In this document: positions 20,728 to 27,905 of the stretch, one piece after another
Layout: the number at the start of each line of letters is the position of its first letter
How positions within the stretch are numbered: the first letter of the stretch is position 1
From: a virus
Length of the DNA stretch: 58,512 bases
IMG/VR virus record: IMGVR_UViG_3300037151_000031
Coordinates: 1 to 58,512 of that record
Strand: one strand, 5' to 3'
The notes under the pieces: generated by a model
What the model saw: the letters and a program-made list of their open reading frames with translations, nothing else
Database searches by the model: none
What the model was told of the DNA's origin: nothing
Position numbers and translations under genes: made by a program

Positions 20728-20953
20728 GACGTGTCCGATGTGCAAGGGTCAGCGGCTCGTTCTCCGAGACATCGGCGAAGGCCGGAAGAAGCAGACGCAG
20801 TGCAGCCAGTGCCTCGGCATCGGCCAGGTCCACGACCCGAACGCAGCCGAGATCTACAAGGCCGCCGTCGCCGACGTCGAGCGCTGCGAGCAGGAACTCG
20901 CCGGCGCCAGGCTGCGGCTCGAGACCGCGGCGGAAGCGGTGAAGCGTGAGTGA
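20717..20953 (+). CDS. DnaJ-type zinc-ribbon protein
   Basis: A 78-residue protein with CPMCKGQR at residues 6-13 and CSQCLGIGQV at about 32-41, a DnaJ-like CxxCxG pair, then a helical tail. It ends 8 nt before the first repeat array, and its last codons (GTGAGTGA) resemble block B of that array. Role unknown. Confidence 0.65.
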   Translation: MASKTCPMCKGQRLVLRDIGEGRKKQTQCSQCLGIGQVHDPNAAEIYKAAVADVERCEQELAGARLRLETAAEAVKRE

Positions 20954-20961
20954 AGCTAACG

Positions 20962-21503
20962 CAGTGAATACGAGGCGGCCACAACGAGCGATTGAGCAGC
21001 AGTGAAAACGAAAGCGGACCAACGAGCGACTTCTGCGCAGTGAAAACGAGCGAACCAGAGCGAGCGAAGCCACAACAGTGAATGCGAACGTTCAACAGCG
21101 AGCGATCACCGGCCAGTAAAAACGACGAAAGCACAGCGAGCGAAGGTTCCCCAGTGAAACGAGAGCCCGACAGCGAGCGAGATCGAGAACCAGTGAAAAC
21201 GAGAGTGCTCCAACGAGCGAGTCTTGTGCAGTGAAAACGAAGAAGATGCAGCGAGCGAAGATAAGAGAACGAGAGCGATAAGAAGACAGCGAGCGACCGT
21301 GCCGCAGTGAAACGAGACGGAAGCAACGAGCGAAGCACCGCCAACGAAGAGACAGGACCTCAGCGAGCGAGCAGCAGTGAAAACGACGAAGGAGTAGCGA
21401 GCGAGCCTCGTGCAGTGGAAACGACGAAGGAGCAGCGAAGAAGCTGACAGCGTGCGAAAGCTTTGCAGTGAACGCGAAGGTAGAGCAGCGAGCGCACACA
21501 CCA
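20962..21503. repeat. Two-block, two-spacer 38-bp repeat array A (14 units)
   Basis: Non-coding region of about 565 nt. The unit is CAGTGAAAACGA (block A), a variable 8-mer, CAGCGAGCGA (block B), another variable 8-mer: 38 bp. Units begin at 20962, 21000, 21038, 21076, 21114, 21152, 21191, 21229, 21267, 21305, 21342, 21375, 21413 and 21466; most steps are exactly 38. Both blocks fit CAGYGA...CGA, so the array alternates two related half-sites. First spacers are purine-rich, second spacers mixed. The last unit runs into the ribosome-binding site of the next gene. Units 9, 11 and 13 are degenerate or altered. Confidence 0.93.
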
Positions 21504-21518
21504 CCAGGAGAGCGAAAC

Positions 21519-22028
21519 ATGGCGAACCAAGCAGATGTGATTCCGATGGGCCGGCTTGCAGAATCGGCGACACGCATCAAGGCCGCGATGAGGGCAGGCG
21601 ACACCGGCTACGCGATGATCGCGCACGAGGTCGTCAGCATCGAGCAACGATGGGACATCCTGAAGGGAGAGGCCGAAGGGCGGTCCATCCATCGATGGAT
21701 CAAGGAAGAGATCGGCACGAAGGACCTGGCGTGGTGGCGGCGTCTCGCGAGTGGCGTGACGCGCCTGTCCAGGCATGTCGCGGCGCACTTCTCGACGCAG
21801 GCGATCTTCTGGCTGACGCAGAGCGTGCCAGAGCGCTACCTCGACGAGGTGCGTGACGCTTCGCTCGCGCTGCAACGACGCGAGAAGCAGCCTTCGCCCG
21901 TGACGCTCGCCCAGGCGAAGCGGATGGGGAAGACGATCCTGCCAGCCCACCCGAAGGTCGACGGCTGCGCAGACTGCGAGGCCCTCCGCGCACAGGTGCG
22001 GGAGATGGGGGGCGAACCGAGAGTGTGA
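21519..22028 (+). CDS. Hypothetical protein framed by the repeat arrays
   Basis: A 169-residue protein. ATG 21519 is preceded by AGGAGAG. It is helical throughout: TRIKAAMRAGDTGYAMIAHE, IHRWIKEEIGTKDLAWWRRL, then LSRHVAAHFSTQAIFWLTQ, with a Cys pair (CADC) near the C-terminus. The Trp/Arg-rich middle looks capable of binding nucleic acid. Because array A precedes it and array B follows it immediately, it is a candidate array-binding protein. I do not recognise a family. Confidence 0.65.
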   Translation: MANQADVIPMGRLAESATRIKAAMRAGDTGYAMIAHEVVSIEQRWDILKGEAEGRSIHRWIKEEIGTKDLAWWRRLASGVTRLSRHVAAHFSTQAIFWLTQSVPERYLDEVRDASLALQRREKQPSPVTLAQAKRMGKTILPAHPKVDGCADCEALRAQVREMGGEPRV

Positions 22029-22036
22029 AAATTGAC

Positions 22037-22290
22037 CAGTGAATACGAGGCGGCCACAACGAGCGATCGAGCAGCAGTGAAAACGACGAAGGACCAGCGA
22101 GCGACCGCAGAACAGTGAAAACGAAGAAGACGCAGCGAGCGATTCATGCGCAGCGAATGCGAAGTGCGGGCAGCGAGCGAGGTTCGCCCAGTGAAAACGA
22201 GTCTGAGACAGCGAGCGCGCATGCGAAGAATGCACAGCGCGCGATACTCCTAGAGTGAAGACGACGATGTAGCAGCGAGTGACCCACCAC
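22037..22290. repeat. Two-block, two-spacer 38-bp repeat array B (7 units)
   Basis: Same unit as array A. Units begin at 22037, 22075, 22113, 22151, 22189, about 22215 (5' truncated) and 22253. The first unit matches the first unit of array A at 37 of 38 positions, spacers included, while later spacers mostly differ. The array begins exactly 8 nt after the preceding stop codon, as array A does, and ends at the ribosome-binding site of the transposase-domain gene. Confidence 0.93.
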
Positions 22291-22309
22291 AACCGAAAGG
22301 ACAACGACC

Positions 22310-23440
22310 ATGAGCATCGAAGAAGCAGTGAACATGCTGGCCCCGAAGAAGCGAACGCGGGTCGCGCGAAAGGTGATGCCGGACGCGCCGGTGATTCCCG
22401 TGCATGAGGAGCCTCGCAAGGAGCTGCGACGTCTCGTCGGCATGCACGCACGGTGGACCCGTGAAGCGCGGACCTTCGGGCAGATGGTCGGGCCGATCCC
22501 GATCTTCCCCTCCGATGGCAAGCCGGTCATCGAGAAGGGGAAGCTTCCGAAACGTCCGACGGACAAGGACCCGGTCACCGTCGTTGCCATCAAGGCGGCG
22601 CAGAAGCAGCTCCAGCATGCCGCGGGCGAACTGGAGAAGGCGATGGTCGCCGAACTGAAGAAGCTTCCCGTCTTCAATCTCTTCCTCGACCGCGTCTACG
22701 GCATCGGCCCGGTCGTCGCTGCATACATCGCGGCAAACGTGGACATCAGCCGCGCGTGGCAGCCCAGCAAGCTGGCGAGATACTTCGGCAACACCCCAGG
22801 GCCATCGGGCCGCATGGAGCGAAGGGTCGCGGGTAGCGCGCCGAAGTATGCGCCGAACGGAGAACTCGACAGCGCGCGCGGCGGCTCCCCCAACGACACG
22901 ATGAGGACCATCCTCTGGCAGGGCATGGTCGCGATGCGAAAGAACTCGGCCAAGTTCACCAGGTGCGCAGCGCACGATGCAGCCTGGGGCGAACTGAAGC
23001 CAGCCGACAGAGCAGCCTTCCGTCGCGAGAAGTGCGCAGAGTGCCCCGAGTGCGCGAAGACCGCCTCCCCGTTCGGCCAGACGTCGAAGTACCTGGATCG
23101 CTGGGCAGAGTCACTCCACGCGAGCCGGACCATGCCGTACGTGAACCCAGACGGGAAGCCGACGAACATCGACAAGAAGGGCCGCATGAAGGCGGCCGAC
23201 GTCTTCATTCACGACCTCTACATGATCATGCGCGCCATCGACGGGCTCGACGTTTTCCCGACGTATGCGACCGTGAAGCGAGATCGAGAGCATGGGATGA
23301 ACGGCCCAGTGAACAACGGCCAAGGCGCCAAGATGTCCGTCGACGAAGCTCTCGCCATGATCGGCGAGGTGGGCAAGCGGCCAGCCACCCGCTTCATGTT
23401 TGATGCCGATGTGGAAGAGGAGGATGGCGATGACGAGTAA
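22310..23440 (+). CDS. IS110-type transposase C-terminal-domain protein (no DEDD domain)
   Basis: A 376-residue protein with AAAGGA upstream. Residues 34-120 resemble the coiled-coil linker of IS110 recombinases. Residues 125-210 carry the Transposase_20 signature: VYGIGPVVAAYIAANVDIS (helix-hairpin-helix), LARYFGNTPGPSG with S166 at the position of the catalytic serine, and DTMRTILWQ. A Cys-rich insertion (C219, C242, C245, C248) follows, then a YLDRWAESLH and AADVFIHDLYMIMRAI end. The N-terminal DEDD RuvC-like domain is absent and no IS ends are visible, so it looks domesticated rather than a transposon. Confidence 0.75.
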   Translation: MSIEEAVNMLAPKKRTRVARKVMPDAPVIPVHEEPRKELRRLVGMHARWTREARTFGQMVGPIPIFPSDGKPVIEKGKLPKRPTDKDPVTVVAIKAAQKQLQHAAGELEKAMVAELKKLPVFNLFLDRVYGIGPVVAAYIAANVDISRAWQPSKLARYFGNTPGPSGRMERRVAGSAPKYAPNGELDSARGGSPNDTMRTILWQGMVAMRKNSAKFTRCAAHDAAWGELKPADRAAFRREKCAECPECAKTASPFGQTSKYLDRWAESLHASRTMPYVNPDGKPTNIDKKGRMKAADVFIHDLYMIMRAIDGLDVFPTYATVKRDREHGMNGPVNNGQGAKMSVDEALAMIGEVGKRPATRFMFDADVEEEDGDDE

Positions 23441-23819
23441 GCGAAAGCCAGTGCGGACGTTGACATGCCGACTCTGCGGGGAGCGCAAGGTAAGTGCCAG
23501 TGAAGGTCCGTGCGCCTCGTGCCAGGAATTGGGAAGCTTCCGGAGCGCTACCCATGACGCGTGCCGCATGGCGGCGCTATACAAGATGTACCTGGACTCG
23601 TATCGAGGATGGAGTCCTGGGACTACACACGTCGAGGAGTCGATCGCCTGTGCTCTGGGCGTGATGTATTCGCGCCGTGATAAGCACAGGGGAGCGGTTC
23701 TTCTGCCAGAGGACCTGGTCGCCAGGGTCGACCAGGCATTGCCGAAGGCGCCTCTCGCCCGTCTCGCGTGCATTCGTGGCAGCTATGAGAAAGCGAAGGC
23801 GGAGCCAAGTGACGGCTGA
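23430..23819 (+). CDS. Zinc-ribbon protein
   Basis: A 129-residue protein; ATG 23430 overlaps the stop of the gene before by 11 nt. CRLCGERK and CASCQEL form a zinc ribbon at residues 10-33. The rest is alpha-helical (HDACRMAALYKMYLDSYRG). Function unknown; located in the array-associated operon. Confidence 0.6.
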   Translation: MTSKRKPVRTLTCRLCGERKVSASEGPCASCQELGSFRSATHDACRMAALYKMYLDSYRGWSPGTTHVEESIACALGVMYSRRDKHRGAVLLPEDLVARVDQALPKAPLARLACIRGSYEKAKAEPSDG

Positions 23820-24738
23820 AGTCGGGAAGTGGAATCCGCAGCTTCACGCCGAGTACAGAGCAATGCCAGAGGGCAGCCGAAAGCGTGCGCTCGCTGGGAG
23901 GATCATTCGAGAGAATGAGCCGCTAATCAAGACGATCGTGAATCAACTCATCAATAAAGGCGCGCCGACCACTCGCAGGAAGAGCGCCGCCGCACGCATG
24001 GGAGGTTGCCAAGGACTAGGCGAAATTGAATGGGAAGACGCAATGCAAGCGGGCCGAATTGCGATGCTGAAAGCGATCGGTAGTTTCGATCCATCGAAAG
24101 GAAAGATCGCTTTCCACTTCCTGATGCAGGTGCGGTACCAGTTACAAAAAATCGAGACGTTCGAGCTCCACCTTGCCCGGAGCCCGCAGGGCAAGGCGGA
24201 CCAGCGGCCGAAGCTCGGGTTGGTCGGGATGCCTGCGACGAGCGAGGAGCACTCGGCGAGCTCGACGGAGTGGGGGTACGTGAACGCGACGACGGACCTG
24301 GGGGAGATGCTGCCGAGCATGACGCCGACGGGGTCGCATGATCGGCTCGGGGTCGTCGCCGAGGGGGTCGACTGGGTCGGGGGCGTGGAGGGGGTGACGC
24401 CGGAGCTCTTGGCGGAGTGGGAGGAGACCGGGGAGTGGCCGGACAGCGTCGAGGCCTTCGTCGAGGCGAGGAAGCCGGCGGTCGTCTACAGCATCCCGAA
24501 GCCGGCGTTGACCGGGTGGAGTCTGTTCCTGGGCAAGGTGAAGCTCGCGGTGTCGGGGCGAGTGGGCGCGGCGAAGGCGTTTCAGGTCTACGCCATGGGG
24601 TGCGCGGAGCTCGGGGAGCGCTGGCTACCAAGAGCGGCCTTCTTCAAGGCTCTCGAGCCGAAGCTGGTCAGGCAGATCACGATCGGAAGCGGCTACAAGT
24701 CAGAGAAGGGGCTGGCAGGTCTTAGGCTGGTCGCGTGA
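23809..24738 (+). CDS. Sigma-70 region-2-like protein with winged-helix-like C-terminus
   Basis: A 309-residue protein. GTG 23809 was chosen because GGAG precedes it and a longer frame overlaps the preceding gene heavily. Residues 20-110 resemble sigma region 2: LAGRIIRENEPLIKTIVNQL, then WEDAMQAGRIAMLKAIGSFD and IAFHFLMQVRYQLQKIE. No region 4 is obvious. The C-terminal 90 residues (LFLGKVKLAVSGRVGAAKA to KSEKGLAGLRL) look like the DNA-binding tail found on D5-type primases. It may direct host RNA polymerase to late promoters. Confidence 0.62.
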   Translation: MTAEVGKWNPQLHAEYRAMPEGSRKRALAGRIIRENEPLIKTIVNQLINKGAPTTRRKSAAARMGGCQGLGEIEWEDAMQAGRIAMLKAIGSFDPSKGKIAFHFLMQVRYQLQKIETFELHLARSPQGKADQRPKLGLVGMPATSEEHSASSTEWGYVNATTDLGEMLPSMTPTGSHDRLGVVAEGVDWVGGVEGVTPELLAEWEETGEWPDSVEAFVEARKPAVVYSIPKPALTGWSLFLGKVKLAVSGRVGAAKAFQVYAMGCAELGERWLPRAAFFKALEPKLVRQITIGSGYKSEKGLAGLRLVA

Positions 24739-26162: not shown

Positions 26163-26486
26163 TCACGCGGCGGAGGTAACTAGCTCTGGGTATCCGTCGC
26201 CCTCAAGAAACGCCGCGAGTGTCGGGCCAGTCACGCGTTCAATCAACGCACGCTCGCGAGACAGATTGAAACGCACGACGGTCCACACGCCAACGGCCGT
26301 GCGGCTTCGATTGTTCGTCTCGCCCGCCCATCCGTTGAGCACAGGCTCGCCGCTACGGTTTTTCCGCTCGGGAGAAGTGTGGAGCAAGTAGCGCTCACTT
26401 CCTGTGCTCGTGTCCAGAATGCGCGTGAGATATCCCGTTGCGCCCTCTCCCAATACGCTGCCGTAGTAGTCATGGTCGATCCACAT
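26163..26486 (-). CDS. Hypothetical protein
   Basis: A 107-residue leftward protein; AGAGAGG precedes ATG 26486. The sequence looks beta-rich (YLTRILDTSTGSERYLLHT, then VGVWTVVRFNLSRERALIE). No family recognised. About 200 nt of untranslated DNA separates it from the next rightward gene; I see no clear feature in that gap besides AT-rich promoter-like sequence. Confidence 0.55.
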   Translation of the reverse strand: MWIDHDYYGSVLGEGATGYLTRILDTSTGSERYLLHTSPERKNRSGEPVLNGWAGETNNRSRTAVGVWTVVRFNLSRERALIERVTGPTLAAFLEGDGYPELVTSAA

Positions 26487-26689
26487 GGTCTAGCCTCTCT
26501 AGTGTCGGCTCGAATGCCGCGCACGACGTCCCCCGAGATGGGGGGGCGCCGTACGCGATCGGCGAGCTACGCGCGAGCGGCCCGGCGCGTCATCGGAAAA
26601 GCCTTTCGTTTGTGGGGTGGCGTCCCTTGCTACATGACAGAATATACGCGCGGTTCCCGCGCGCGTCAAGCGCCTGCCTAGCTTTTCTT

Positions 26690-27905
26690 ATGTCCGAAGA
26701 GTGGCTGTCGATTTCAGAACTCCGCCCATGGGCGAAAAACCCGCGCAAGAACGATGGAACGCCTGTCGATAAGGTGGCCAGATCCATCGAACGGTTCGGA
26801 TTCGTGGCCCCCATTGTCATATGGCGCAGCGCGGGCCGAATGGTGGCCGGCCACACCAGGCTGAAAGCGCTCACGAAGCTTCTGGCAGCCGACCCCGCCT
26901 TCATCCCGAAAGGCGCGCCTCAAGCCGGCGTGGCCCGAGTGATCTGGCACGAGTTCGAAAGCGAGGAAGAGGCGGACGCATATGCGCTGGCGGACAATCG
27001 CCTCAACCAGGATGCGGCGTGGGACGACAAGCTACTCGCGGAGATCCTTCGCGGCATTGGCCAAGAGCGATCGAAAGCAGCCGGCTTCGACGACAAGGAC
27101 ATCACAGCGCTGCTGGATGCGGGTGAAGGGCCGCCCGAGGAGGACGACGTTCCGGACCTGCCCAAAGACCCCGTCACGAAACCAGGCGACATCTGGCTCC
27201 TCGGCAAGCATCGGCTCGTGTGCGGCGATAGTTGTCAGCCTGCGGTGGTTGCTCACGCAGGGGGGGGGGGCACTCGCGGACCTGCTATGGACCGACCCGC
27301 CGTACAACGTGAGTTACGTGGGCAAGACGAAGGACGCGCTCACCATTGAGAACGACACCATGGCCGACGGAGACTTCCGCCAGTTCCTCGTGGACGCGTT
27401 CAGCGCCGCATCCACCGGCATGCGCGACGGAGCCGTGTTCTACGTCGCACACGCGGACTCGGAAGGCCTCAACTTCCGTGGCTCGGTCCTCGATGTCGGC
27501 TGGAAGCTCGCACAGTGCCTCATCTGGGTGAAGGACCGATTCGTGATGGGGCGTCAGGATTACCACTGGCGTCACGAGCCCATCCTCTACGGCTGGAAGC
27601 TCGGGGCCGGTCACCGGATGCTCGAGGACCGGACTCAGGACACCGTCTGGGAGATCCCGCGTCCAGCCAGAAACGCTCAGCACCCCACGATGAAGCCGCT
27701 GGCGCTCATCGACAGGGCCATCCGGAACTCGTCCAATCGGGGCGACCTCGTCCTGGACACCTTCGCGGGCAGTGGCTCGAGCCTGATCGCATGCGAGGCC
27801 GCCGGGCGATGGTGCGCCGCCGTCGAACTCGACCCGGCATACTGCGACGTCATCGTCGAACGGTGGGAGAACGCCACCGGCGGGAAGGCCAGCAGAGCCA
27901 GCTAG
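26690..27905 (+). CDS. ParB-domain DNA methyltransferase, frame broken at an 11-G run
   Basis: Two frames make one protein of about 404 residues. The first (26690-27349) has a ParB/Srx-type domain (ELRPWAKNPRKND, then GRMVAGHTRLKAL and YALADNRLNQDAAW) and ends with DIWLLGKHRLVCGDS, the usual lead-in to a methylase. The second supplies DPPYN, the catalytic motif IV, then DTFAGSGSSLIACE (motif I, SAM binding), ending at 27905. Ten instead of eleven G residues at 27260-27270 would join them. Beta-class adenine or N4-cytosine methylases with ParB domains are common in phages. Confidence 0.8.
27260..27270 (+). repeat. Poly-G tract (11 nt) at the methylase frame junction
   Basis: Eleven consecutive G residues inside the ParB-methyltransferase gene; loss of one restores a single open frame. 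Either a slippage-prone phase-variation switch or an assembly error. Confidence 0.9.

What the first reader, a model, noticed from the sequence alone, without database searches (positions are those of the whole stretch)
22310..23440. IS110-like Tnp-domain protein lacking the DEDD domain, in a phage operon
The GIGP helix-hairpin-helix and TPGPSG motif with S166 at the catalytic-serine position are retained, but the protein starts where the coiled-coil linker of IS110 recombinases would begin, so the RuvC-like DEDD domain is missing. A Cys-rich insertion is added. It is embedded in an operon with a ribosome-binding site and no transposon ends. This suggests domestication for another recombination or DNA-binding role.
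Basis: partly seen in the sequence, partly recalled or inferred. Interest (0 to 1): 0.75.

Follow-up and report, generated by a model that had tools for sequence, protein, structure and literature searches.

The report
Phage TIGR-TasA RNA-guided system

Summary
The decisive element was missed: two arrays of alternating short repeats (20944-21495 and 22019-22282) directly upstream on the same strand. Each unit is edge CAGCGAGCGA (10 nt), 8-nt spacer, loop CAGTGAAAACGA (12 nt), 8-nt spacer: 38-nt period, about 20 units. Chance expectation for the pattern is 0.01 matches; 15 were found. The best solved-structure match is TasR (E=7.7e-6); the best NCBIfam model is TIGR_Tas_endo (E=1.4e-12 but under its cut-off), ahead of IS110. 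Distant viral relatives, 17 TasH and one TasA, nearly all lie beside 36-nt-period arrays with similar repeats. A predicted fold matches TasH (Z 15), TasR (Z 13) and, less well, IS621/ISCro4 (Z about 9.7). S166 is not conserved, and no DEDD domain occurs on the contig. Likely mechanism (inferred): a TasA dimer loads a roughly 38-nt guide and binds and bends DNA matched on both strands, without cutting. Targets unknown. A divergent new member of a known kind.

The parts
20944..21495 (+). TIGR array 1: about 14 units (14 loop repeats, two of them degenerate), 38-nt period; its first, degenerate edge repeat overlaps the stop codon of the upstream gene
   Evidence: repeat finding, pattern against shuffles, parse
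21519..22028 (+). 169-aa gene of unknown function lying between the two arrays; no family match and no relatives found
22019..22282 (+). TIGR array 2: 6 units, 38-nt period; its first 50 nt repeat the start of array 1 with one difference
22310..23440 (+). tasA: 376-aa Nop-domain protein (coiled coil about 34-117, Nop/Tnp-like C-terminal domain about 118-325)
22964..23056 (+). Cys-rich insertion inside the Nop domain (residues 219-249; C219-x2-H222, C242-x2-C245-x2-C248), possible zinc site
   Evidence: zinc binding is inference

Best explanation
This is a TIGR-TasA system of a tailed phage. Shown here: a Nop-domain protein without a recognisable nuclease domain, encoded directly downstream of two arrays of alternating edge and loop repeats separated by 8-nt spacers, on the same strand. 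Inferred from the characterised relatives in PMC12045711: the arrays are transcribed with the operon and cut in the edge repeats into about 20 guides of about 38 nt (36 nt in the published systems); two TasA copies grip the edge and loop repeats of one guide through matching box motifs; spacer A pairs with one DNA strand and spacer B with the other over about 16 bp (order 5'-spacer A-revcomp spacer B-3', gap 0-2 bp), opening and sharply bending the target. With no nuclease, the likely outcome is programmable blocking or remodelling of that DNA (transcription or replication of a competing element, or host or phage regulation). Targets and biological role are not shown.
For: 15 matches to the two-repeat pattern at up to 3 mismatches against 0.01 expected, all in 20962-22282 and all on the + strand. 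Spacers are 8 nt almost throughout and variable. Best PDB sequence match TasR 9mty, E=7.7e-6 over residues 102-179; profile of window + relatives hits TasH and TasR far above IS621/ISCro4 (the profile contains TasH). NCBIfam TIGR_Tas_endo E=1.4e-12 against IS110 E=1.1e-6. A search confirmed with the window protein found 12 viral loci, all Tas, E down to 9e-9, all with 36-nt periodicity. Relatives' repeats are AAGCGAGCCA/AAGAAACCCA or GAGCGAGCCA/GAGAAACCCA with 8-nt spacers; the window edge CAGCGAGCGA is 8/10 identical, and both window repeats changed in the same way (start CA, end CGA instead of CCA), as the paper says boxes do. Predicted fold: TasH Z 15.2, TasR Z 13.0, ISCro4/IS621 Z 9.7/9.6. 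Tree joins it to Tas, not IS110.
Against: NCBIfam score is below the curated cut-off (48 against 100 bits). The model is only moderately confident (mean pLDDT 59, pTM 0.54) and its alignment was made of Tas relatives, so the fold match is not independent. The tree has very long branches. No terminator-like site ends the arrays. No close relative found in any collection. No target found. Nothing shows expression, processing or DNA binding.
Confidence: 0.93

Rival explanations
1. Domesticated or degenerate IS110 recombinase that lost its DEDD domain and now has another recombination or DNA-binding role.
For: Weak Transposase_20 match, PHROG 4285 'transposase', local YFGNTPGPSG motif similar to IS110 YFGLTPRVRQSG and weak plasmid IS110 hits (E 0.2-0.8).
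Against: Tas models and structures score better; TIGR arrays adjacent; serine position not conserved in relatives; no DEDD domain on contig; tree separates it from IS110.
Confidence: 0.04
2. The protein is a TasA but the arrays are decayed or serve another purpose (for example regulatory repeats or binding sites of a DNA-binding protein), so the system is not an active guide system.
For: Some units are irregular: loops at 21267 and 21342 are degenerate (7/12, 7/11), two loops lost one base, one spacer A is shortened; spacer B is purine-rich (72% against 49% for A, p=4e-5) and spacer B sequences resemble each other more than expected (7 close pairs, mean 2.1 shuffled, 5 of 2000 as high).
Against: Most units keep exact 8-nt spacing and near-perfect repeats, with the same box changes in edge and loop; the orientation and position match the active relatives.
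Confidence: 0.12
3. TasA acts as an RNA-guided architectural factor for phage recombination or segregation rather than as a blocker of other elements.
For: The published authors propose DNA bending as an aid to integrases and note TasA-ParB operons. A ParB_N-like gene lies about 3 kb downstream.
Against: The ParB_N match is weak and part of a ParB-methyltransferase arrangement, with other genes in between; no integrase was identified here; no self-targets above chance.
Confidence: 0.15

Closest known systems
TIGR-TasA with dual-repeat array (Faure et al. 2025, PMC12045711; here best seen in L022, a 254-aa TasA)
   Same: Solo Nop protein with no nuclease; alternating 10-nt-class repeats, 8-nt spacers, several sub-arrays around the gene, same strand
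   Different: 38-nt instead of 36-nt unit because the loop repeat is 12 nt; boxes end in CGA instead of CCA; longer protein with a Cys-rich insertion; 26% identity over 119 residues to L022
TIGR-TasH (Salicola phage CGphi29, PDB 9w03/9vzx/21kl)
   Same: Nop domain aligned end to end; edge repeat AAGCGAGCCA 8/10 identical to CAGCGAGCGA; 8-nt spacers
   Different: TasH has an N-terminal HNH nuclease and a 36-nt unit; the window protein has no HNH match
TIGR-TasR (Thermoproteota, PDB 9mty)
   Same: Best PDB sequence match to the Nop core; fold Z 13.0
   Different: TasR has an N-terminal RuvC nuclease
IS110 recombinases (IS621, PDB 8wt6; ISCro4, 9t56)
   Same: Homologous Tnp/RNA-binding domain, fold Z 9.6-9.7; similar local YFGxTP..SG motif
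   Different: No DEDD domain; TIGR arrays present; serine not conserved in Tas relatives

Membership tests
TIGR-Tas (dual-repeat type) | Nop-domain effector protein | tested here: met
   TasR E=7.7e-6; TIGR_Tas_endo E=1.4e-12, below its cut-off; fold match
TIGR-Tas (dual-repeat type) | Two distinct alternating 8-12-nt repeats with short spacers (8-12 nt) | tested here: met
   10-nt edge, 12-nt loop, 8-nt spacers; definition
TIGR-Tas (dual-repeat type) | Array adjacent to the tas gene, several units | tested here: met
   Array 2 ends 27 bp before the tasA start; about 14 + 6 units
TIGR-Tas (dual-repeat type) | Box motifs shared between edge and loop repeats (covariation) | tested here: met
   Both begin CA(G) and end CGA, where relatives have (A/G)AG...CCA in both
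TIGR-Tas (dual-repeat type) | Terminator after the array (typical, not defining) | tested here: inconclusive
   No terminator-like site after either array in a simple scan; the arrays lie inside an operon
TIGR-Tas (dual-repeat type) | Array processed into about 36-nt guides bound by Tas | not testable with these tools
   needs small-RNA sequencing
TIGR-Tas (dual-repeat type) | Guide-directed DNA binding with each spacer pairing to a different strand | not testable with these tools
   needs biochemistry; no self-target above chance
TasA subtype | No HNH or RuvC nuclease domain | tested here: met
   No nuclease model in Pfam, PHROGs or NCBIfam; N-terminal 80 residues are poorly modelled, so a very divergent domain is not excluded
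IS110 recombinase | N-terminal DEDD (RuvC-like) domain | tested here: not met
   no PF01548 match on the contig at E up to 10
IS110 recombinase | Tnp domain with catalytic serine | tested here: inconclusive
   Serine present in an IS110-like motif, but weak Tnp score and position not conserved in relatives
IS110 recombinase | Bridge RNA and element ends | not tested
   No Rfam match on the contig at gathering score, but bridge RNA was not modelled

The most novel reading that the evidence does not exclude
A divergent branch of TIGR-TasA in which guides are 38 nt with a 12-nt loop, box C has changed from CCA to CGA together with the box-contacting residues of the protein (the HxH of relatives is N286-I-D288 here), a possible zinc module is inserted in the Nop domain, and the arrays grow by copying and mutating existing units, with the first edge repeat doubling as the stop codon of the gene before it.
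Probability: 0.3. Interest if true: 0.6.

Novelty: new member of a known kind. Interest (0 to 1): 0.45.

Why it matters
TIGR-Tas was described in 2025, and what the nuclease-less TasA form does, what it targets and how its arrays grow are stated open questions. This phage adds a divergent TasA with about 20 guides, altered but co-varying box motifs that could test how repeats and protein co-evolve, and two arrays whose first 50 nt are nearly identical, which points to expansion by duplication. It also shows that solo IS110-like Tnp-domain proteins in phages should be checked for neighbouring arrays before being called domesticated transposases.

Tried and rejected
Close relatives by peptide pattern in viral and bacterial collections: none. 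Exact repeat pattern in viral contigs: none. Relatives of the inter-array gene, the major head protein and the terminase in viral contigs: none. Arthrobacter phage Brynnie gp45 as a Tas: rejected, no family match and no array. Self-targets in the contig: 58 candidate sites in the expected order at up to 3 mismatches against 29-52 for shuffled spacer pairs, best 2 mismatches in both, so not convincing. Single-sequence structure: useless, pLDDT 37. Small hairpins near the 3' ends of both arrays (21433, 22219) looked like stem-loop edges, but similar inverted repeats occur elsewhere in the arrays. Targets in large collections were not sought: a 16-bp site with a gap of 0-2 is expected by chance many times. 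Long minus-strand ORFs across the arrays (for example 21360-22451) are judged artefacts of stop-poor repeats; the 38-nt period is not a multiple of 3. Structural search libraries listed no box C/D Nop5 match among top hits; this does not exclude kinship.

Full report
What was checked. The ORF 22310-23440 (+) encodes 376 aa, with GIGP at 131-134, TPGPSG at 162-167 and a cluster C219, H222, C242, C245, C248. Pfam gives only a sub-threshold Transposase_20 match (E=0.0077) and PHROGs a weak 'transposase' match (E=0.00037). The window is a whole viral record of 58,512 bases from a contractile-tailed phage: terminase, head protease, major head protein, tail sheath, tape measure and baseplate genes are present. 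No DEDD_Tnp_IS110 domain was found on it.

The missed element. Repeat finding showed 38-nt periodic repeats immediately upstream. The two-repeat pattern CAGTGAAAACGA-N8-CARCGAGCGA has 15 matches at up to 3 mismatches, all on the + strand between 20962 and 22282, against a mean of 0.01 in shuffles. Parsing gives array 1 (20944-21495, about 14 units) and array 2 (22019-22282, 6 units), separated by a 169-aa gene (21519-22028), with tasA starting 27 bp after array 2 (the last units of each array were read by eye from the same output). Spacers are 8 nt with few exceptions. In both arrays the first loop repeat lies exactly 8 nt after the stop codon of the preceding gene, so a degenerate first edge repeat (6 of 10 matches in each) overlaps that stop codon.

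Identity. These are the features of TIGR-Tas (PMC12045711): a Nop-domain protein next to arrays of two alternating 8-12-nt repeats with short spacers. The best PDB sequence match is TasR, E=7.7e-6 over residues 102-179, followed by TasH at E=0.76. NCBIfam TIGR_Tas_endo matches at E=1.4e-12 (48 bits, under its cut-off of 100) and beats the IS110 model (28 bits). Among 50,697 phage records the top weak tblastn hit was Salicola phage CGphi29, the published TasH phage, E=3 and therefore not significant alone.

Relatives. The CGphi29 TasH brought in 12 viral loci. An alignment search confirmed with the window protein brought in 12 loci, E=9e-9 to 5e-5, two of which (L016, L026) are contigs already found. 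All but one of the distinct loci tested show 36-nt periodicity at the tas gene; L006 did not. L022 (254 aa; L023 is identical over the protein) is a TasA without nuclease. Repeats there are AAGCGAGCCA/AAGAAACCCA-like or GAGCGAGCCA/GAGAAACCCA with 8-nt spacers. The window edge repeat is 8/10 identical to these, and both window repeats share the same departures: start CA and end CGA instead of CCA. This is the edge-loop covariation described in the paper. The unit is 38 nt because the loop repeat is 12 nt.

Fold. With 19 aligned sequences the model reached pLDDT 70-87 in the coiled coil and Nop core but 59 overall. Foldseek's top 11 matches are all TasH or TasR; VIA-align gives TasH Z 15.2, TasR 13.0, ISCro4 9.7, IS621 9.6, next unrelated 4.0. 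Because the alignment was made of Tas relatives, this supports the family but is not independent proof.

The serine. In alignments of relatives the column of S166 holds mostly H, with S, T or G in some, so it is not a conserved catalytic residue in this family. Plasmid IS110s have YFGLTPRVRQSG where the window has YFGNTPGPSG, so the local resemblance is real but short. A tree places the window with Tas, nearest L022, and apart from IS110, with long branches that make the exact place unsure.

Mechanism. Shown: gene, arrays, family. Inferred from published relatives: processing into guides of about 38 nt, binding by a TasA dimer, dual-strand DNA targeting and bending. No nuclease domain was detected, so binding without cutting is most likely. 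Targets: no enrichment in the phage's own contig. Array growth: the first 50 nt of arrays 1 and 2 are identical but for one base, and spacer B sequences are more alike than expected and purine-rich, which suggests duplication followed by mutation; this is suggestive only.

Limits. No expression data, no close relatives, no known host, no targets, and the N-terminal 80 residues remain poorly modelled.

Noticed in passing
20962-21011 and 22037-22086: The first 50 nt of both arrays (loop, spacer GGCGGCCA, edge, spacer TYGAGCAG, loop) are identical except for one base, pointing to duplication of an array start.
   Followed up: partly
20944-20953 and 22019-22028: In both arrays the first loop repeat starts exactly 8 nt after the stop codon of the upstream gene, so a degenerate first edge repeat overlaps the stop codon (CGA read as TGA).
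   Followed up: partly
spacers of arrays 20944-22282: Spacer B is 72% purine against 49% for spacer A (p=4e-5); comparator arrays show no such general bias.
   Followed up: partly
26438-27905: A ParB_N-like segment and an N6/N4 DNA methylase lie in two overlapping reading frames (26438-27349 and 26982-27905), like one fused gene split by a frameshift.
   Followed up: no
23803-24738: Weak Sigma70 region 2 match (E=2.4e-4): possible phage sigma factor two genes downstream of tasA.
   Followed up: no
window 1-58512: The phage is an orphan: terminase and major head protein found no relatives in viral contigs and only distant ones among named phages.
   Followed up: partly
21519-22028: 169-aa gene between the two arrays without any family match or relative; could be an operon partner of TasA.
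   Followed up: partly
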